NCBI RefSeq assembly: GCF_007830435.1
Contig: NZ_VLLC01000003.1
Coordinates: forward strand, 94,538 to 158,537
Source: Desulfobotulus alkaliphilus
GTDB lineage: Bacteria > Desulfobacterota > Desulfobacteria > Desulfobacterales > ASO4-4
DNA length: 64,000 bases
Direction of reading: 5' to 3'
The number at the start of each line of letters is the position of its first letter. Positions within the stretch are counted from its first letter, which is position 1. This document shows, piece by piece, positions 53,506 through 63,052 of this stretch. Position numbers and translations under genes: made by a program. Below the pieces are notes generated by a model. The model was not told the origin of the DNA. It was given only the letters and a program-made list of their open reading frames with translations, and searched no databases.

Positions 53506-53536
53506 AGACGCCAGATCTGCTCCTGTGATTTTTTTT

Positions 53537-53721
53537 GTACTTGTTCAGCATTATTTTCGAGCTACCATATCTGCCAGGCAGATGCACAGGCACCCAAGCT
53601 ATTTGCCAGTGACGCAAACGATTGCAACGTCACTTTCAAATAGCCAGGGTGCCTTGCAACACTTTGAATCTGCTGTAATTACAGCATTGGGATTTCAGAA
53701 TAAACGATGCTGAACAGTCAC
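53537..53721. repeat. Family-1 repeat, copy E (185 bp internal-deletion form)
   Basis: It starts GTACTTGTTCAGCATTATTT and ends ACGATGCTGAACAGTCAC. Both subterminal blocks of copy D are present (CAGATGCACAGGC and AATTACAGCATTGG), but the interior is reduced to GTGACGCAAACGATTGCAAC, i.e. the hairpin has been cut out. This shows which part is dispensable. Confidence 0.8.
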
Positions 53722-53751
53722 GTTCTTTTGTAGTCTCACAGGCCTATCCTT

Positions 53752-56700
53752 TTAATCCCTGTCTATATCCAGACGCAGCCCCGTATCTGCGGGGGGCTTT
53801 GCCTTTTTCTGCCATAAAGATCCCGTCATCAGGGCCTGCCATGCCCATGGCGCCCATGAAAGAACCCGTCCCGCCAGCCAGAGCGCCCAGGCAAACATCA
53901 GCAGACGCCAGAAAAAGAGGGGCATGGTGAACACACCTGCTGAGGGCAGAAGGCCCTCACTGCGGTCTGCGGTCCAGCGCAGCAGCCCTGTGTGGGAGCC
54001 GTTGCCTGCTATCTGCATGTCCGGGATACCCAGCAGACCGTTGCGGACCCCTTCCAGAAGCAGCAGGGCCATGGTGACAAGTAAAAGCCCCAGACCACAC
54101 TGCCAGAGGTTGTGCAGCACTCCCATGGGGGCGTTTTGTCTGCTGCGCCAGTCAAAGATGAAAAATCCAGCGCCCACAATCAGCACGGCAAAGGGGGAAA
54201 GGGAGACCAGTCCCAGACCCAGAAGCAGCCAGTCCCTTGTTCTGAGGGGGGATTTATCCGGCCTGAAGCTGAGAAGGGCCGTTGCCGTCAGCACCAGAAA
54301 AATCCAGCCCCAGATGCGGACGCCCGGTCCCAGAAGGGGACCATAGGTCCAGAGCAGCCACTGATTTTTATCCAGATGGATTTCCTGGGTAATATTGGCC
54401 GTGGGCATGGCCATGTCCATCTTTGGCATGGAAAGGATGCGGGGCCGCAGCAGGGGTTTTTTCTGCTCTTCCATTTCCCATACGAACTGAACCCTGTGGG
54501 TTCCCGGTGTCAGGGGAAGCAGGAGGTCTTCATTTTCTCCGGGAAGGGGCTGCAGTTCTCCGTTGATGCGGATTTCTTTGATTGTGGCCCCTTCCGGATT
54601 CTTTATGGGATGGAGAAAGGCCTTGCCGGAACGGATCGCTGCTTCCATGGTCAGCCGTCTGCGCTCCCTGCCGTCTTCAAGTTTCAGCAACACATTTTCT
54701 GCCGTGCGTGTGGGGCCGGGGGCAGGCTCCATGGCAGTGAGGGAAAGGGTCAGGCTTTCACCGGGAAGGGGTGTCCATACAAGGCCCCGGCCTGAGGGTC
54801 GGGGTGCCGCCGGGGTGCCGGACCATGAAAGGTGACGGTCCGTATCTCCGTGAATCTCCCACTGCTCTGAAAAAAGAAGGGTTTCTGCAGCAAAAAGCCG
54901 GATGCTGTCTTCTTCGGGAAGGCGGCTTTCCCAGGCAATGCGCTGCCTGTGGCCGGGGATGGGAATTTCCACATGCCCGTCCCTTACGGGAAAACCATCG
55001 CTGATGACGGTTTCATCGGGAATCAGGGGAATGCGCAGACTGCCGGACACAAGGCCCGGATAGGGTCGGCTGACCTCGGTTCTGACCTGCCAGTAGCGGT
55101 CCCGGCTGATGATCCTTTTTACCTGCACAAAGGCTTTCAGTTCCGGAGATGCGTCTTTGGGAATGTCTTCGGCCCTGCTGTGTGCAGGCGTGAAGGTGAG
55201 GCTGTCCCGTACCCTTCCTGCGGCATCCAGCCCCTCCGTGTTCCAGCCCGGCGCTTTAAGCACGAGGCTGTCCGGCGGCAGGGGAAAATTCAGGCGGAAG
55301 CGGTTTTCCGGCAGGCTTCCCTGAATGCGGAGGGTATGGATGCCTGCGTCCACGGGGATATGGTTTTTTCCCCGCCAGAGCAGAAGGGATTTTTTTTCTC
55401 CGTTGAGAAGGGTTTCAAAGGAAGGAAGGCTTTCATCGGTGGCCGGTATGGGAAAGGCCAGTTTTTTACCCGCATGGATTTCCATTTCAAGGGCAAAGCC
55501 GGGGTTTTCTGCCTCGGGATGGTCCAGCACAAGGCTTGCGGGGCCGCTTCTGGCGCAGTGGGGATCACAGAGGTGTTCCGTCTGCATTCTTTTTTTTAAG
55601 TCTTCCAGCATCCATTCCGGAGGAAATTCTGCCCTGACTCCCGTGGCGGGGAGGAAAAGGAGAAGAATAAGGAAGGCACCTGCGGTTTTGCCCAGAGGGG
55701 AAAGCCTGTAGGGAAAGCCCGCAGCCAGACGCCCCAGAACCAGCAGAACAAAGCCGACCCGGAGCAGGGCCGCAAGGGAGGCCGCAAGGGGCGGTATCAG
55801 ATAAAAGACAAGGCTGTGGGAAGATCCGGTAAGGCCCGTATGCACCGGGATGCTCCGCCACTGCCAGTCAGGAACGCCGGGGCCTGTCTGGGTGACGGCC
55901 GGGGCTTTGGCGGGGGCTTCCATGGCATGGAAGGGTTGGGCATCCTGTCTGCTCAATACCTGTCTTCTGGCCTCACCGGCTTCCATGGCTTCCATGGCCA
56001 CGCTGGGAAGGGCATCGGCGACCATGGCTTTTTCCTGCATCATGGTTTCGCTTCGCAGGGTCCTGAGGGCGGCTTTGTCGCCTGCCCTGTGGGAAGGGGC
56101 CCTGTCCAGCCTTTCAAGCTGGGGATAGATGGCCGTTCGGATCTGATCCGCAGCATAGGGGAGGGCCACAAGGCCTGCGGTAAGGAGCAGAAAAACATGG
56201 ATTCCCGACAGAATGACAAGGCCTGCAGCCGGTATGTTTTCACGCGTACTGGCATATTTTCCAAGGGCTGCCGTGGCCGCAAGACCGAACCAGAAGAAAA
56301 GGGGCAGGGGGAAGCTGTGGTGGAAAAGGGCGATGGCAAGGCCGAAACCAAGGCCCCATCCTGTGCCCCAGATGCGCAGGGCCACGCCGGAAAGCATGAC
56401 CAGAAAAAAGACATCCAGCAGGGTCCAGCGGGAAGTGAAGCTGTCGTCCATGGCGGTTTTTCCTCCCTGCATACCCGCCAGATGCCAGCCCGGAGGCAGA
56501 TGCAGGGTGATATCCGTCTGCTCATGGCGGTGCTGCCATCCCCCAGGAAGGGGGGTGCCGGAGAGTTTGCCGTCCATGCGGCTGAGTACCGTAAGGGAAA
56601 GGGGGCCCGGTGGCAGCTCTATACCCTGCAGGCTGTCCTTGACGGTGATCATGCGATCCTGTTCATTGAGGGCCATGCGGCCGGGCAGGAGGGGGCCCTT

Positions 56701-57867
56701 TGTATCCATACCCATATAACGGCGGGTGTTGAGGGTACCCGTAAGCTGATCCCGGACCGTGGCTCCTTTGCCGTCAAAGTCCAGCCAGATATCCCTTTTC
56801 ATCCGGAGCCTGTCTTCCGGGGGCTGCTGCAGCGTTTCCCGGATGACCAGTCCGGGGCTGGCATCGGGGGCCATGCGATAGGCGGCATGGCGTTTCCAGG
56901 CATCGGGCAGGGGGGTCTGTCTGGGATCTACGGACTGTCCGCCCGTAAACTCTGCGGCCCTCAGTTCAGGAGCAGGAATAAAAACCCAGAGTTCATCTTC
57001 CCTGCGACCTTCCAGACGGAATTCTGTATCTGATCCGGAGAGCAGATGCACAAGGCGGATGGTGAAATTGCCGGGCCGCAGATCCATCACAAGGCCCTCT
57101 TCCAGCCCCGGTTTCAGGGGCAGGGGACTTTCCACAAATACAAGGGAGGCCTTTTCCGGCATGGGAACGGCCAGTCTTTCCTGACGGGGGCTTCCCGAAA
57201 CAGCCAGTTGTATCCGGGTTTCCAGCTCCAGGGGATGGCCGTCCTGAAGTTTTCTGAAAATACGCATCTCCGTATGACCCTGTGCCCTCCCTTCTCCGGT
57301 GGCAGGCCGGGCTTTCAGCCAGAGCCTGCCACCCGTATCCCTTTGCAGCCCATGGATGGCTTTCTGATTTTTTTCTACCCGGATCAGGGAAATTTCAGGG
57401 GGAATGCTAAGGGTATCGGGAAGGGCTGACCATGCAAACTCACCTTTTATAATATGACTTCCCGGCTTAAGGTAGATAACGGGTCTGTTTTTTTCCAGAA
57501 GCACCGGTTCTTCCCTGCCATTGACCCGCACCCTGCGGGGCATGCGCGCTGCATCTCCGGGAAGGGGGACGGCACTTTCAAACAATACATCCCAGCCAAT
57601 GGTAAAATGGCCGCCCTTTTCTTCCAGTTCAAGGCTAAGGGGACCGGGCCAGATACAGAGGCTTTCCGCCGTATTATCCGCTGTCTGGGGGCAGATGTTT
57701 TTTCTGTCCTGCTCCTGCACCCATGGCACCCAGGGTTTCAGGGGCTCAGGGATGTTTTCCGGGCTGCGGGCCTGCACACCGGATAAGGGAAAAAAGACAA
57801 GCATGGAAAGGGCAAGGCAGAAAAGGAAGATGGGGAAAGGGCCTTTTTGGGACGGGCAGGTGTGCAT
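53752..57867 (-). CDS. Very large membrane protein of unknown function (1371 residues)
   Basis: It starts at an ATG with AAAAGGAG upstream and has a signal-like N-terminus (FLFCLALSMLVFFPLSGVQA). Residues 35-480 are beta-rich and probably periplasmic, with no cysteine-based motif. Several membrane helices follow (about 485-590). A polar region (620-690) and two helices lead to a second periplasmic block (about 770-1150) that begins AEFPPEWMLEDLKKRM and contains a C-D-P-H-C pair. The C-terminus (about 1160-1350) has another helix cluster. The two halves share the same plan, suggesting an old duplication. I do not recognise the family. It is flanked by repeats and has no operon partner, with GC content like the core genes. 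Confidence 0.7.
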   Translation of the reverse strand: MHTCPSQKGPFPIFLFCLALSMLVFFPLSGVQARSPENIPEPLKPWVPWVQEQDRKNICPQTADNTAESLCIWPGPLSLELEEKGGHFTIGWDVLFESAVPLPGDAARMPRRVRVNGREEPVLLEKNRPVIYLKPGSHIIKGEFAWSALPDTLSIPPEISLIRVEKNQKAIHGLQRDTGGRLWLKARPATGEGRAQGHTEMRIFRKLQDGHPLELETRIQLAVSGSPRQERLAVPMPEKASLVFVESPLPLKPGLEEGLVMDLRPGNFTIRLVHLLSGSDTEFRLEGRREDELWVFIPAPELRAAEFTGGQSVDPRQTPLPDAWKRHAAYRMAPDASPGLVIRETLQQPPEDRLRMKRDIWLDFDGKGATVRDQLTGTLNTRRYMGMDTKGPLLPGRMALNEQDRMITVKDSLQGIELPPGPLSLTVLSRMDGKLSGTPLPGGWQHRHEQTDITLHLPPGWHLAGMQGGKTAMDDSFTSRWTLLDVFFLVMLSGVALRIWGTGWGLGFGLAIALFHHSFPLPLFFWFGLAATAALGKYASTRENIPAAGLVILSGIHVFLLLTAGLVALPYAADQIRTAIYPQLERLDRAPSHRAGDKAALRTLRSETMMQEKAMVADALPSVAMEAMEAGEARRQVLSRQDAQPFHAMEAPAKAPAVTQTGPGVPDWQWRSIPVHTGLTGSSHSLVFYLIPPLAASLAALLRVGFVLLVLGRLAAGFPYRLSPLGKTAGAFLILLLFLPATGVRAEFPPEWMLEDLKKRMQTEHLCDPHCARSGPASLVLDHPEAENPGFALEMEIHAGKKLAFPIPATDESLPSFETLLNGEKKSLLLWRGKNHIPVDAGIHTLRIQGSLPENRFRLNFPLPPDSLVLKAPGWNTEGLDAAGRVRDSLTFTPAHSRAEDIPKDASPELKAFVQVKRIISRDRYWQVRTEVSRPYPGLVSGSLRIPLIPDETVISDGFPVRDGHVEIPIPGHRQRIAWESRLPEEDSIRLFAAETLLFSEQWEIHGDTDRHLSWSGTPAAPRPSGRGLVWTPLPGESLTLSLTAMEPAPGPTRTAENVLLKLEDGRERRRLTMEAAIRSGKAFLHPIKNPEGATIKEIRINGELQPLPGENEDLLLPLTPGTHRVQFVWEMEEQKKPLLRPRILSMPKMDMAMPTANITQEIHLDKNQWLLWTYGPLLGPGVRIWGWIFLVLTATALLSFRPDKSPLRTRDWLLLGLGLVSLSPFAVLIVGAGFFIFDWRSRQNAPMGVLHNLWQCGLGLLLVTMALLLLEGVRNGLLGIPDMQIAGNGSHTGLLRWTADRSEGLLPSAGVFTMPLFFWRLLMFAWALWLAGRVLSWAPWAWQALMTGSLWQKKAKPPADTGLRLDIDRD

Positions 57868-57984
57868 GGTTTTCTCCTTTTGGGGAATCCGTGGTATGCT
57901 GTAATCCTTCAGAATCCGGAAGAGGGAATCCTCCTAAGCAAATTTGAGAATTTGAGTTATAAGGTGGAAATTTAAAAAAGAATC

Positions 57985-58040
57985 TACAGGGCCGAAAAAC
58001 CATTCACAGGGGCAGACCTTCAAGCCTGCCTGTATTAAAA
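57985..58040. repeat. Family-2 fragment
   Basis: It resembles the part of R1 reading AACCATTCACAGGGGCAG, then CTTCAAGCCTGCC. It stops a few bases before the first PilB-remnant copy. Confidence 0.5.
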
Positions 58041-58050
58041 TATCCAATCG

Positions 58051-58540
58051 TACCCCCATATCCTCTGTCCTGCCATATAAAAATGCAGGTCCTGCCCTGT
58101 AGCCCATGCATCCAAAGGCATTTTTGTCACAGACCCCAGGGTATAGGAGAAGTCCGTTCCCGCTGAAAAAAACCTTCTGCCCTGAAAGGGAAGAACTGGC
58201 AGAAGCTTCCACCGGGACGAGACTCTGGATCTTTAGGAAATATTCTTTTACCTTGGCAGGGGAAGTGCAAAATGCAGACATAGGGGCTACGGCGGCAGGC
58301 TTGCCATCCATGAAGTGTTTGTGATGACGGAAGCTGTGCGTGCCCTCATTGCAAAGGGGGCGTCCATCCTTGAAATCAATGAAATGGCAAGGCAGGCGGG
58401 TTTTCAGTCCATGCGGTACGATGGCATGAAAAAGGTACTGGCCGGTCTCACAAGCCTTGACGAACTGGAACGGGTCACCATGGGAGATGTGTAGCATGAA
58501 AACGGATTTTGCCCCGCCTGAAAGGGCCTCTGAGAAAAGG
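58051..58540 (+). pseudogene. PilB/GspE ATPase C-terminal remnant with kinase start, copy 1
   Basis: The plus strand encodes the end of a type IV pilus or type II secretion ATPase: CRHRGYGGRLAIHEVFVM, then TEAVRALIAKGASILEINEM, finishing at TAG 58492-58494. Upstream the frame is broken: an in-frame TAG precedes EIFFYLGRG, and the earlier CPEREELA segment is in another frame. One base after the stop, ATG 58496 begins the same 13 codons as the intact kinase at 60873, then diverges and stops at 58570. It is collinear with 60428-60917 (fixed offset 2377), about 95% identical by eye. Confidence 0.8.
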
Positions 58541-58746
58541 GGACTGCTTTTTCAGCATAAAGATCTTTGAAATTACAGACAAATATGGATAGGCACAAAT
58601 TTTTTTAATCACAGAATACACGGAAATAGTATTGAAAAAGGATGCGTTAGCAAGATACTCTCCGGCTCTTGCCCTATGTTGCTTTCTTTTTGAACTACCT
58701 GGAATTTATGGTCCGTTTGCTGTTATACATTCAGCCATCCTCATTC

Positions 58747-59901
58747 TTACCCCTCCCTGTCCAGTTCTTTCTCAATTTCCTCAATGGAAGGGAGGCTTGG
58801 CTTAAGATCTTCCGGTAAAGACTCCGTTATCTGCTGTTCCCACCCGGCAACGCCTATGGGTTTTGTATTGCCCGCAAGGGCGTATTTGACAACGGTATGA
58901 TTTTTATCTTTGACAAGCAGCAGGCCAATGGTCGGTTTATCGTCCGGATGCCGAAGCATGTCATCGACGATATTCATATACATGGTGAGTTGGCTGACAT
59001 GGCCCGGACAGAACTTTCCGGCCTTCAGCTCCACCACCACAAAACATCGGAGCTTTAGATGATAAAAAAGCAGATCAATATAAAAATCATCTCCGCCGAC
59101 TTCCATGGGAACCTGCCGCCCGACAAAGGCAAAACCCTGCCCAAGCTCCAGAAGAAATTTTTCCAGATGCTCGATAAGCTTATTTTCCAGCTCCGCTTCT
59201 TTTCGGATTGCAGCCGTACCAAGAAAATCAAAGAGATATGGATCTTTGAAAATCTGCTTGGCCATATCGGAATCATCCGGTGGTAAGGTGGCTTCAAAAT
59301 TATTGGCACTCTGCCCGATTCTTTGATGCAGCTTTGTTTCTATCTGAAAAGACAAAACATCACGGCTCCAGCCATTCTTCTGATTTTGTTCAACATACCA
59401 AATGCGTAATTTCATATCTTTCACTTTGTACAAAAGAAGCTGGTTGTTACGCCATGGTATTTGTGCAGCGCTGCGCTGCACTATTTCTCTATCGGGCCAA
59501 CATTCAGCAAACTTACGCATATCTTTAAGATTTCTTACGGAAAAACCATTCATCTCCGGAAATGCCTCCCGTAAATCAACAGAAAGGCGATCAATGATTC
59601 TTGCTCCCCAGCCTGACTGCTCCTGCTTTTCCAGAATATCACGACCAATATCCCAGTACATGAGAATCTGGGCAACATTGGCAGACAAAACCGCTTTCAG
59701 CCGTTCCGTTTTTACCCGGTGCTTAACCTGCTTTAAAAAATTCGCATAATCACCGGGTAACTCCATCGGGGCAGCAGGAACCGGCAAAATCACTTCTGTA
59801 TTCTTACCCTTATCCCGCCTTTTTCTCTCACTGTCTTCATTGTGTTCCGTTGCTTTACCCAGTTTAGGCCCGCTGGTATCCATGTGAGGTTTTTTCTTCA
59901 T
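58747..59901 (-). CDS. DUF1016/YhcG-type PD-(D/E)XK nuclease-fold protein
   Basis: This 384-residue protein has a polar N-terminus (1-45), the DUF1016 N-terminal helical domain with LMYWDIGRDILEKQEQSGWG and FSVRNLKDMRKFAECWP, and a C-terminal PD-(D/E)XK fold: D276 in DFYIDLLFYH and E291/K293 in VVVELKAG form the catalytic set. YhcG proteins are often next to restriction systems or in defence islands and are presumed DNA nucleases; their partner is unclear. AAGGAG precedes the ATG. It sits alone between two copies of a PilB-kinase junction. Confidence 0.9.
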   Translation of the reverse strand: MKKKPHMDTSGPKLGKATEHNEDSERKRRDKGKNTEVILPVPAAPMELPGDYANFLKQVKHRVKTERLKAVLSANVAQILMYWDIGRDILEKQEQSGWGARIIDRLSVDLREAFPEMNGFSVRNLKDMRKFAECWPDREIVQRSAAQIPWRNNQLLLYKVKDMKLRIWYVEQNQKNGWSRDVLSFQIETKLHQRIGQSANNFEATLPPDDSDMAKQIFKDPYLFDFLGTAAIRKEAELENKLIEHLEKFLLELGQGFAFVGRQVPMEVGGDDFYIDLLFYHLKLRCFVVVELKAGKFCPGHVSQLTMYMNIVDDMLRHPDDKPTIGLLLVKDKNHTVVKYALAGNTKPIGVAGWEQQITESLPEDLKPSLPSIEEIEKELDREG

Positions 59902-59944
59902 TTTACAGGCTCCTTACATCAAGGATAAGGATATATAGGTATCG

Positions 59945-60375
59945 GGAAAGGCACGAAAGTTGATTATTCATGGTTGTCTCCTCTCCTCTGTTTTGGACTG
60001 CCGAGGAATCCTCATGGCTTGCTTCCCATTCGGCATGAGCTTCTTCCGCAGAAATCCGAGACAGTGTCTCGGAAATTGGCAGAGACTAAAGATTGAACAG
60101 GTATCGCCTGTTGAATCTCAATATAACCGCCGTAAAACTTCCGCATTAATTCCAAATTATCGACGGAAAATCCTTTGCCCAGCTTGTGAGTCAACCTCTC
60201 TGATAAATTTTGAGCAAATTTTTCCCATATGCCGCTCGATCAGAGCCGCTCTGCTGATATTCCAAAATATATCGGCCAAACAGCCAGTTCCGCAGCCACA
60301 TTTCCCAACGATTTGTTATCAAGAATTCCCGGAGACGGTTTCATTTTTTGTTCTTCCCTTCACTGGCAACCGCAT
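59945..60375 (-). pseudogene. Frameshifted N-terminal remnant of a second DUF1016 protein
   Basis: Read on the minus strand, three frames together give the DUF1016 N-terminal domain. NWLFGRYILEYQQSGSDRAA and YGKNLLKI come from one frame, LSERLTHKLGKGFSVDNLEL and MRKFYGGYIEIQ from a second, and ISETLSRISAEEAHAEWEA from a third. No nuclease domain follows; the intact DUF1016 gene starts directly after. The remnant is a different subfamily from the intact copy, so it is a paralogue and not a duplicate. Confidence 0.75.
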
Positions 60376-60427
60376 CATGCACGGAAGCCATAATAAATGA
60401 CCTTCTTTCTTTGCAGTTTTTTAAGAA

Positions 60428-60871
60428 TACCCCCATATCCTCTGTCCTGCCATATAAAAATGCAGGTCCTGCCCTGTAGCCCATGCATCCAAAGGCATTT
60501 TTGTCACAGGCCCCAGGGTATAGGAAAAGGCCGTTCCCGCTGAAAAAAACCTTCTGCCCTGAAAGGGAAGAACTGGCAGGAACTTCCACCGGAACGAGAC
60601 TCAGGATCTTTCGGAAATATTCTTTTACCTTGGCAGGGGATGTGCAAAATGCAGACATAGGGGCCAGGGCGGCAGGCTTGCCATCCATGGGGGTTTTGTG
60701 ATGACAGAACCTGTACTTGCCCTCATTGCAAAGGGGGCGTCCATCCTTGAAATCAATGAAATGGCAAGGCAGGCGGGTTTTCAGCCCATGCGGTACGATG
60801 GCATGAAAAAGGTGCTGGCCGGTCTCACAAGCCTTGACGAACTGGAACGGGTCACCATGGGAGATGTGTAG
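60428..60871 (+). pseudogene. PilB/GspE ATPase C-terminal remnant, copy 2
   Basis: The C-terminal frame reads DLSEIFFYLGRGCAKCRH, then GQGGRLAIHGGFVM and KGASILEINEMARQAGF, and stops at TAG 60869-60871. It keeps GRGC-x-x-C, which copy 1 has lost, but has lost the EVF segment that copy 1 keeps, so both have decayed independently. The CPEREELA part upstream is out of frame in both copies. Its stop codon lies one base before the intact kinase start. Confidence 0.8.
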
Positions 60872-60872
60872 C

Positions 60873-62015
60873 ATGAAAACGGATTTTGCCCCGCCTGAAA
60901 GGGCTTCCGAGGAAAGGGTAAGGCAACAGACCCTTAGCCTGTTCGAGCATCCTTATATTGAAAAGCTGTATGACGGTATTTCAGAAGGACTTTTGATTCT
61001 GAACCCGGAACGGCAGATCGTCTATGCCAACGGGAGTTTTCTTAAGGCCTTGGGAGTGGATTTCAAAGCGATAAAAGGACTGCGCTCCGGTGAGGCCCTG
61101 CGCTGTATCCATGCCTTCAAAACCGAAGGAGGCTGCGGCACCACGGAGTTCTGCCGGGAGTGCGGAGGGGCTCAGGCCATTCTTTCTTCCCAGAAGGGTT
61201 CGCCCGATCTCAAGGAATGCCGGATTCTCCAGAAGGACTCCGGAGATGCCCTGGATCTTCAGGTAAAAACCTCGCAGCTGCAGGTGGACGGGGTGGAGTA
61301 TACGGTCTTTGCCGTAAAGGACATAAGCTCAGACAAACGCAGGCGGATTCTGGAAAAAATATTTTTCCATGACATCATGAACACGGCCGTGGGGGTACGG
61401 GGGCTTTCCGAGCTGCTTTCCATATCATCTCCGGAAACTCTGGATGAGTTCAGAAACATGATCTACAGCGGTGCGGCCAAGCTTGTGGATGAAATCCGCT
61501 CCCAGCGGGATCTTGCCAATGCGGAAAACAATGAGCTTCAGGTACAGCCTGTAAAAATCCATTCCCTTGATTTTCTGAAAGAGGTTTTCAGCCTCTACCA
61601 AAACCATGAGGTTGGAAAGGATAAAATACTGCATCTGGATACGGATTCAGAGGATCTGCCTTTGGAAAGTGACAGGGCCCTTCTTTTCCGGGTTCTGGGT
61701 AACATGACCAAAAATGCCCTTGAAGCCTCACAACCCGGTGATACCGTCACCCTCGGCTGCCGGAGGGAAGGGGACAGAATCCGTTTTTTTGTTCACAATC
61801 CCGCCTTCATGCCAAGGAAGATCCAGCTTCAGGTTTTCCAGCGTTCCTTTTCCACCAAGGGCGCAGGCAGGGGCCTTGGTACTTACAGCATCAAGCTTCT
61901 TACGGAACGTTATCTGAAAGGTGAGGTTTTTTTCACCTCATCGGAAAAAGAAGGAACCTGTTTCTACGGGGTTTATCCCCTTTCAGAAAATGCAGAAACA
62001 ACAAAAAAGGCATAG
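60873..62015 (+). CDS. PAS sensor histidine kinase with four-cysteine cluster
   Basis: The product is 380 residues from the ATG at 60873. An N-terminal PAS domain (about 30-145, GLLILNPERQIVYANGSFLK) contains C78, C88, C94 and C97 in the arrangement C-x9-C-G-x4-C-x-x-C-G, suited to a metal or Fe-S site. A HisKA-like segment with H166 (FFHDIMNTAVGVRG) and a HATPase domain (MTKNALEA, STKGAGRGLGTYSIKLL) follow. It has no membrane helix, so it senses a cytoplasmic signal such as redox state. It was once downstream of a pilB/gspE gene, now a remnant. No response regulator is adjacent. Confidence 0.88.
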   Translation: MKTDFAPPERASEERVRQQTLSLFEHPYIEKLYDGISEGLLILNPERQIVYANGSFLKALGVDFKAIKGLRSGEALRCIHAFKTEGGCGTTEFCRECGGAQAILSSQKGSPDLKECRILQKDSGDALDLQVKTSQLQVDGVEYTVFAVKDISSDKRRRILEKIFFHDIMNTAVGVRGLSELLSISSPETLDEFRNMIYSGAAKLVDEIRSQRDLANAENNELQVQPVKIHSLDFLKEVFSLYQNHEVGKDKILHLDTDSEDLPLESDRALLFRVLGNMTKNALEASQPGDTVTLGCRREGDRIRFFVHNPAFMPRKIQLQVFQRSFSTKGAGRGLGTYSIKLLTERYLKGEVFFTSSEKEGTCFYGVYPLSENAETTKKA

Positions 62016-62071: not shown

Positions 62072-63052
62072 TCAGGATCTCCAAAGGATCAGCCCCACAA
62101 GGCAGATGATGATAATCATCCACACAAGCAGTCCGATCTGCCCTGCGGTTTTTGCGGAGTCCTTTCTCCATGAATGCATGGGAGAGACCCCCTGAGCAAT
62201 GAGGGTCAGGATGGCTGAGAGATTAACTCCGCTGATATTGACAAAACAAAGGAGAAAGGCAGCGCCTGCCAGCTCCCATGCCCCTGTCCCGAGAAACATG
62301 CCACATACCACAAGGGGCGGCATCAGGGCTACGGCAACCATAACACCCGTCAGTGCCGCAGGTGCGCCTGCTGTAAAGGCAAGGGTTCCTGCACACCCTG
62401 AAGCAAGGGAAAGCAGAATATCACCAAGCCCCACTTCCGTACGTGCGGCAATGGCGGGAATATCCTTGTCCACCCCCAGAAAAAAACCGATGGATGCGGC
62501 AAGGATCAGGGTCAGCCCGAGACCCAGAGCATTGGCGCTAAGGGCGGTTTTTGCAAGATTGCGGCTGCCCAGCACAAAGGAAAGGGCCAGACCGATATTG
62601 GGTGTCAGCAGAGGGGCGATAACCATAGCACCGATGACTATGGCCGTATCTCCCCTGCGCAGGCCGATGGCTGCCACAATGGCGGAAAGAATAACGGTAA
62701 GAATAAAAAGTCTTGAAATTTCTGTTCCGGAGGCAATATCTGAATAAAGTTCTTCCCGGCTGATTCTTCCAATGGCCTTTTTTTTATGTTCTTCACTTTC
62801 TTCATAGTAGGGGAGGGTCGCTTCCACGGGAAGAAAAACGGCCCTGAATCCGGTCTGGTTACCAAAGTGCTTGCGAAGAAGGTCTGAAACCGACTCCGTA
62901 TGGTTCTGGGGAAGCAGAAGACGTACGAGAAATCCCCCACCTTCAAGGGGTTCTTCCCAGCGGTCAATGATTTGTTGCTCTTCCCTGAAAACGGCATCCA
63001 GAAATTCCCGGGTGGTATCCGGAATCTTTGCCTGAAGCAGACGCAGTGCCAT
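62072..63052 (-). CDS. DUF389 (TIGR00341-type) membrane protein
   Basis: This 326-residue protein has an N-terminal soluble region of about 105 residues and then seven hydrophobic segments. RRGDTAIVIGAMVIAPLLTP and TGVMVAVALMPPLVVCG are the conserved DUF389 signatures. The transported substrate is unknown for the family. AAGGAGAG precedes the ATG. It diverges from the channel gene at 63338; a 285 bp intergenic region lies between them, AT-rich, with no assigned element. Confidence 0.88.
   Translation of the reverse strand: MALRLLQAKIPDTTREFLDAVFREEQQIIDRWEEPLEGGGFLVRLLLPQNHTESVSDLLRKHFGNQTGFRAVFLPVEATLPYYEESEEHKKKAIGRISREELYSDIASGTEISRLFILTVILSAIVAAIGLRRGDTAIVIGAMVIAPLLTPNIGLALSFVLGSRNLAKTALSANALGLGLTLILAASIGFFLGVDKDIPAIAARTEVGLGDILLSLASGCAGTLAFTAGAPAALTGVMVAVALMPPLVVCGMFLGTGAWELAGAAFLLCFVNISGVNLSAILTLIAQGVSPMHSWRKDSAKTAGQIGLLVWMIIIICLVGLILWRS

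What the first reader, a model, noticed from the sequence alone, without database searches (positions are those of the whole stretch)
58051..60917. DUF1016 island bracketed by duplicated PilB-kinase junctions
Two collinear ~490 bp repeats (fixed offset 2377 bp) enclose an intact DUF1016 gene and a broken one. The repeats are the end of a PilB/GspE gene plus the first 13 codons of the kinase. This is what remains if the defence-type segment entered through a duplication or recombination at that junction. The copies have each lost different conserved residues, so the event is not recent. Direct repeats also allow the island to be lost by recombination, restoring a single junction.
Basis: partly seen in the sequence, partly recalled or inferred. 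Interest (0 to 1): 0.65.

Follow-up and report, generated by a model that had tools for sequence, protein, structure and literature searches.

The report
Nuclease gene between duplicated gene ends
A predicted DNA-cutting gene of the DUF1016 family sits between two copies of a broken gene junction, and in related bacteria genes of this family are bracketed by repeated stretches, some of them ends of neighbouring genes, more often than other genes, which hints at how it enters chromosomes.

Summary
Two direct repeats (58051-58540, 60428-60917; 467 of 491 positions identical, no gaps) enclose an intact DUF1016/YhcG nuclease gene and a broken DUF1016_N fragment. Each repeat holds a pilB that was already dead (Walker-A scrap, tail, shared frameshift) plus 15 kinase codons, so the duplication came after pilB died. 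Congener G002 keeps intact pilB-kinase, with a DUF1016 ruin and a second pilB-tail scrap upstream. The nuclease DNA is 95% identical to a copy at another locus in congener G001, whose other aligned genes are at 70-86%: it has moved. Left of copy A is a rearrangement breakpoint beside a dispersed repeat.
Beyond the window, 15 of 112 DUF1016 genes are bracketed by direct repeats within 1.5 kb, against 3 of 118 control genes; solo ones 13 of 49, restriction-linked 2 of 63 (split made afterwards). Some repeats are host-gene tails, with pN/pS 0.04-0.33 between copies in five. Plasmid and viral samples: 0 of 36. Best reading: insertion with long target duplication, known for restriction genes, here with DUF1016. 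Tandem duplication remains a live rival.

The parts
58051..58540 (+). Repeat copy A: dead pilB remnant plus first 15 codons of the kinase gene, truncated
60428..60917 (+). Repeat copy B: same, running on into the intact kinase gene
58747..59901 (-). Intact DUF1016/YhcG gene (384 aa; PF17761 + PF06250; PADLOC PDC-S02)
60012..60299 (-). Broken DUF1016_N fragment; 93% DNA identity to G001 C19:942-1228
60474..60524 (+). Walker-A scrap of pilB inside copy B (equivalent in A by the offset: 58097-58147)
60578..60868 (+). pilB tail in copy B (equivalent in A: 58201-58491)
60873..62015 (+). Histidine kinase gene (PAS, HATPase); 84% identical protein in G002
57986..58045 (+). Copy of a dispersed repeat of about 60 bp, ending 5 bp left of copy A
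58541..58746 (+). Spacer between copy A and DUF1016; no homologue among the loci held from other genomes
60300..60427 (+). Spacer between the DUF1016_N fragment and copy B; homology with G001 stops at 60299

Best explanation
The stretch 58541-60427 is a horizontally moving DUF1016 nuclease cassette in which no transposase or integrase was recognised. [quoted passage not shown] Shown: the repeats, the prior death of pilB, similar later drift of both copies, high identity of the cassette to a copy at a different locus in a congener, and enrichment of bracketing direct repeats around DUF1016 genes in the genomes sampled. Inferred: that cassette entry and junction duplication were one event, and that the nuclease or its selection causes it. 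Most likely route: incoming DNA carrying DUF1016 next to a stretch homologous to the recipient junction is joined at one side by homology and at the other by illegitimate joining, so that the homologous stretch is kept twice. The nuclease may help by cutting, or only by being selected as a defence gene.
For: Geometry and unique pair. Shared pilB lesions. Mobility: 871 bp at 95% and 289 bp at 93% to G001 C19, while the 1371-aa gene, channel and DUF389 align to G001 at 70-74%, the neighbouring gene upstream at 76% and another region of the genome at 85-86%. Family pattern: 15 of 112 DUF1016 genes (14 of 103 loci) against 3 of 118 control ORFs within 1.5 kb, inverted 0 of 112 and 1 of 118; 20 of 112 against 4 of 134 within 4 kb, gene-end type 10 of 112 against 1 of 134; both copies within 300 bp of the gene in 9 of 112; solo 13 of 49, RM-linked 2 of 63, or 13 of 52 and 2 of 60 when only HsdM and HsdS count, a split made after seeing the data; DUF4143 control 0 of 23 against DUF1016 4 of 27 in the same geometry, two of the four being loci already counted. 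Gene-tail cases: L132, L137, L155, L174, L181, L186. pN/pS between whole and displaced tail 0.04, 0.11, 0.14, 0.29, 0.33 in the 5 of 7 cases that could be scored. A congener of the L174 genome has one such tail and no DUF1016 match.
Against: DUF1016 on plasmids 0 of 19 and on viral contigs 0 of 17 showed no bracket; E. coli K-12 yhcG has no long bracket. In the window the copies are one dead sequence drifted apart (pN/pS 0.59), unlike the best of the other cases. The silent excess is clear only in L174 (16 of 18 differences silent) and L137 (16.5 of 22); L132 (5 of 11) and L186 (9 of 20) are weak and L155 has 5 differences. In G002 the DUF1016 ruin lies beside a pilB-tail scrap but not between two tails. 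No empty site with the single dead junction was found. In 6 of the 15 cases the repeat occurs more than twice in its locus. The loci are mostly from the top of two listings in draft genomes, not a random sample.
Confidence: 0.45

Rival explanations
1. Tandem duplication with loss. A 2377-bp unit (DUF1016, fragment, dead pilB tail, kinase start) was duplicated in tandem; the left unit was later cut back to its right end, copy A, by the rearrangement that joined the block to the 1371-aa gene.
For: The spacing equals one unit; left of A is a rearrangement breakpoint next to a dispersed repeat: window up to 57891 is collinear with G002 C1 and the kinase side with G002 C5. G002 has another neighbour there and G001 a 69% match to it next to its own 1371-aa gene. 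DUF1016 beside a pilB tail is also found in G002.
Against: Needs two events; no remnant of a second DUF1016 lies left of A: 57892-58050 matched nothing but the dispersed repeat, in the own genome and among the held loci. It does not account for the enrichment elsewhere.
Confidence: 0.3
2. Passive clutter. DUF1016 genes sit in variable, repeat-rich regions, and any accessory gene there would show such brackets; the nuclease has no role.
For: The window's genome is rich in dispersed repeats; in 6 of 15 cases the repeat occurs more than twice in its locus; RM-linked DUF1016 shows no excess over controls, 2 of 63; plasmid and viral DUF1016 0 of 36.
Against: Controls came from the same loci (3 of 118; two of the three in one array of L282) and another patchy single gene gave 0 of 23. 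Copies sit within 300 bp of both gene ends in 9 of 112.
Confidence: 0.22
3. Assembly artefact: a repeat joined wrongly in a draft genome of 95 contigs.
For: Draft assembly; repeats are where assemblers fail (general knowledge).
Against: The copies differ at 24 sites and lie about 50 kb from the nearer end of a 205-kb contig.
Confidence: 0.03

Closest known systems
Insertion with long target duplication (Nobusato et al. 2000, restriction-modification genes of Helicobacter pylori)
   Same: A nuclease-type gene bracketed by long, variable direct repeats of host sequence and linked to rearrangement (passages of PMC1643837, PMC3031569 and PMC3874152; the 2000 paper itself was not read).
   Different: Here the gene is DUF1016, alone, not a restriction-modification pair; a clean empty site was not found for the window; in some other loci the two tails look like diverged alleles.
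YhcG/DUF1016 family (COG4804, PF06250 with PF17761); PADLOC candidate PDC-S02
   Same: Both domains at full profile length; invariant D276, L292 and K293 of the ELK motif across the aligned relatives. DUF1016 on mobile elements is known: a rickettsial conjugative element, with Enterococcus and C. difficile elements cited (PMC4316617 passages).
   Different: No paper in the library holds both DUF1016 and 'direct repeat' (0 papers); most of the papers listed were not opened. PMC1189080 (passages) reports no conserved neighbourhood and one link to type I restriction, whereas 61 of 119 loci here have an Hsd homologue within 2.5 kb, 57 counting only HsdM and HsdS.
Composite transposon or integrative element with att repeats
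   Same: Direct repeats at both ends.
   Different: The repeats are host gene parts; no transposase or integrase domain was found in DUF1016 or in five further ORFs between the repeats.

Membership tests
DUF1016/YhcG | DUF1016_N followed by YhcG_C nuclease domain above Pfam cut-offs | tested here: met
   141.1 bits (cut-off 32.8) and 205.7 bits (cut-off 32.5)
DUF1016/YhcG | PD-(D/E)XK fold with active-site residues | tested here: inconclusive
   Invariant D276, L292, K293; model of low confidence, mean pLDDT 62.3; best Foldseek match the repair endonuclease 2vld at E 2.0e-3, none at E 0.001 or better
PADLOC PDC-S02 defence candidate | Match to the PDC-S02 models | tested here: met
   best E 2e-143
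PADLOC PDC-S02 defence candidate | Protects against phage | not testable with these tools
   no assay
Insertion with long target duplication | Long direct repeats of host sequence at both ends | tested here: met
Insertion with long target duplication | Relative with a single copy of the target and no insert | tested here: inconclusive
   G002 has one intact junction but also a DUF1016 ruin and an extra pilB-tail scrap upstream; for another locus (L174) a congener fits
Insertion with long target duplication | Insert is a restriction-modification gene | tested here: not met
   DUF1016 only; no restriction or methyltransferase domain among the eleven window ORFs scanned with Pfam
Composite transposon / IS | Transposase in the element and terminal inverted repeats | tested here: not met
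   No transposase domain; inverted repeats listed are short (20-28 nt) and none brackets the cassette

The most novel reading that the evidence does not exclude
Solo DUF1016 genes are single-gene mobile elements of a homing kind: the nuclease promotes its own insertion behind host genes, arriving with the donor's version of the neighbouring gene end, so that the recipient keeps a working gene with one tail and a displaced second tail. The window would be an old, decayed instance.
Probability: 0.15. Interest if true: 0.75.

Novelty: new variant of a known kind. Interest (0 to 1): 0.5.

Why it matters
How single defence-type genes enter chromosomes without a transposase is poorly known. A gene family that repeatedly shows duplicated host gene ends makes the question testable: one can look for matched empty sites, and test whether the nuclease activity is needed for insertion. 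It would also tie a widespread nuclease of unknown role to the mobility described for restriction genes.

Tried and rejected
Composite transposon and integrase element: rejected, no such domains found. E. coli yhcG as a source of empty sites: in 6 of the 40 rows listed the match begins only behind the gene, the left neighbour differs between strains, and K-12 has no long bracket, so uninformative. Mosaic origin of B from the G002 tail scrap and pilB: left part 6 to 3, right part 1 to 8 of informative sites (dividing line at 58241 chosen by me; three sites past the end of the scrap's homology left out); too few. Solved structures of the family: none by sequence at E 0.01. Structure model: weak. 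Viral and plasmid replicate: negative. The figure printed for 'L132 Y start' is in a wrong frame and is not used; L181 (gaps) and L288 (no open frame) could not be scored.
Full report
What is there. The search of the window's genome, a draft of 4.0 Mb in 95 contigs, found only these two copies and one 22-bp match. Between them lie an intact DUF1016 gene on the minus strand (58747-59901) and a broken DUF1016_N fragment (about 60012-60299). Five further ORFs between the repeats have no Pfam match. Copy B runs on into an intact histidine kinase gene (60873-62015); copy A stops after 45 bases of it.

What the repeats are made of. In congener G002 the kinase gene is preceded by an intact pilB of 568 aa, and that by a response regulator gene. 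Against it, both window copies show the same damage: a Walker-A scrap (60474-60524 in B; score reached by 0 of 300 shuffles), loss of most of the ATPase core, and a shared one-base deletion ahead of the tail. The first 46 bp of the repeat show no pilB homology. pilB was therefore dead before it was duplicated. Polarised by G002, B carries 13 and A 9 of the 24 changes; one site fits neither and one has no outgroup (site list, sites within the repeat). In the tail the copies differ at 6 silent and 12 replacement positions, pN/pS 0.59, close to what unconstrained drift gives.

The cassette has moved. Window 59054-59924 is 95% and 60012-60299 93% identical to G001 C19:77-1228. There it lies beside genes that I read as isocitrate dehydrogenase and thiamine biosynthesis (ORFs, not searched), and its left end is lost near the contig's end. 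Other genes of the window's genome align to G001 at 70-74% (1371-aa gene, channel, DUF389), 76% (gene upstream of these) and, elsewhere, 85-86%. In G002 a DUF1016 ruin (86-89% to the window) abuts a degenerate pilB-tail scrap upstream of the intact response regulator-pilB-kinase set. DUF1016 next to a pilB tail is thus older than the split of the two species, or arose twice. Which tail became which is unclear; a mosaic test was only suggestive.

The surroundings are rearranged. Window sequence up to 57891 is collinear with G002 contig C1 and the kinase side with C5. G002 has another neighbour next to the 1371-aa gene, and G001 a 69% match to that neighbour next to its own copy. Just before copy A lies a copy of a dispersed repeat of about 60 bp, with 39 other matches listed in this genome.

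Is this a pattern of the family? I took 120 further DUF1016 loci, 60 places each from the listings (mostly from the top), and asked whether left and right flanks share a direct repeat of at least 60 bp at E 1e-5. Of 121 loci with the window, 119 had a DUF1016 ORF. Within 1.5 kb, 15 of 112 testable DUF1016 genes (14 of 103 loci) had one, against 3 of 118 ORFs of 250-500 aa elsewhere in the same loci (Fisher P 0.0025; two of the three controls lie in one repeat array); inverted repeats 0 of 112 and 1 of 118. Within 4 kb: 20 of 112 against 4 of 134, but control flanks were shorter (median of the two flanks together 6.4 against 8.0 kb); gene-end type 10 of 112 against 1 of 134 by a mechanical rule. 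An earlier, cruder pass, with the window, gave 13 of 56 against 2 of 77. Another patchy single gene, DUF4143, gave 0 of 23 against 4 of 27 for DUF1016 in equal geometry; two of those four are loci already counted. In 9 of 112 both copies lie within 300 bp of the gene. In 9 of the 15 cases the repeat occurs exactly twice in its locus; in L167, L253, L262, L274 (one gene), L279 and L288 more often.

Two lifestyles. 61 of 119 loci have an HsdM, HsdS or HsdR homologue within 2.5 kb, 57 counting only HsdM and HsdS. Bracketing repeats belong mainly to the others: 13 of 49 solo genes against 2 of 63 RM-linked ones (P 0.0004), solo against controls P 9e-6, and 11 of 47 when the window and a second ORF of L274 are dropped; 13 of 52 against 2 of 60 by the narrower rule. 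This split was made after seeing the data. Against the pattern: 0 of 19 tested plasmid loci (of 20 fetched, several of them RM-linked by annotation) and 0 of 17 tested viral loci (of 27 found), and no long bracket at E. coli K-12 yhcG.

What the repeats are elsewhere. L132: tail of a gene and first codons of a DnaQ-like gene, the very type seen in the window. L137: tail of a WYL-type regulator. L155: atpA tail and atpG start, with an hsdM piece, DUF1016 and hsdS between. L174 and L181: ABC-transporter tails. L186: hsdM tail (gene names are my reading of the translations). L137 and L181 have broken DUF1016 ORFs and L155 a wider bracket, so these three are outside the 15. In the six the DUF1016 gene runs in the same direction as the whole gene and downstream of it; in the window it runs against pilB. 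Of seven coding cases tried, five could be scored: pN/pS between whole and displaced tail 0.04 (L174), 0.11 (L137), 0.14 (L155), 0.29 (L132), 0.33 (L186). A displaced copy that diverged after duplication should approach neutrality; at least in L174 (16 of 18 differences silent) and L137 (16.5 of 22) one tail probably came from another lineage with the gene. The rest are weak: L132 5 of 11, L186 9 of 20, L155 3 of 5 silent. Local alignment also favours conserved stretches. The congener of L174's genome has a single such tail in the loci read and no DUF1016 match, equally distant from both tails (84.0 and 84.6%).

Reading. The window fits insertion with long target duplication, described for restriction-modification genes and said to go with rearrangements (passages in PMC1643837, PMC3031569, PMC3874152). 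DUF1016 belongs to the PD-(D/E)XK nucleases and is placed near DUF91 (PMC1189080 passages), which agrees with weak NucS matches (that DUF91 is NucS is recalled). The searched library holds no paper with both DUF1016 and 'direct repeat'. Whether the enzyme makes the insertion happen, or is just selected, is open. For the window itself a tandem duplication cut back by the rearrangement explains the geometry about as well.

Noticed in passing
window 57986-58045; 53530-53730; L081 8446-8760 and 13277-13600: Dispersed repeats: a family of about 60 bp (39 other matches listed in the own genome) and longer ones of about 310 bp with dozens of matches in G000 and G002 (part also in the window). Not identified.
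   Followed up: partly
window 62072-63052: A DUF389 gene lies between kinase and channel gene in the window's genome but not in G002, where about 110 bp separate them.
   Followed up: no
window 53752-57867: A 1371-aa ORF with no match in Pfam or NCBIfam, with homologues in both other congeners held.
   Followed up: no
L241 8129-8233 and 8969-8995: E. coli K-12 yhcG carries 27-nt palindrome-like repeats in its 5' part and one copy just behind its stop codon; possibly a binding or cutting site of its own.
   Followed up: no
L371 4633-6029; L155 4429-6287: An hsdM amino-terminal piece directly before a DUF1016 gene, in a Deinococcus plasmid (annotated) and, by my reading, in L155.
   Followed up: no
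L274 5978-11477: Three DUF1016 ORFs in a row with copies of one spacer sequence between and beside them.
   Followed up: no
L288 5106-8470; L132 10470-10997: A DnaQ-like exonuclease gene or its pieces recur next to DUF1016 in two genomes of one genus (g24).
   Followed up: partly
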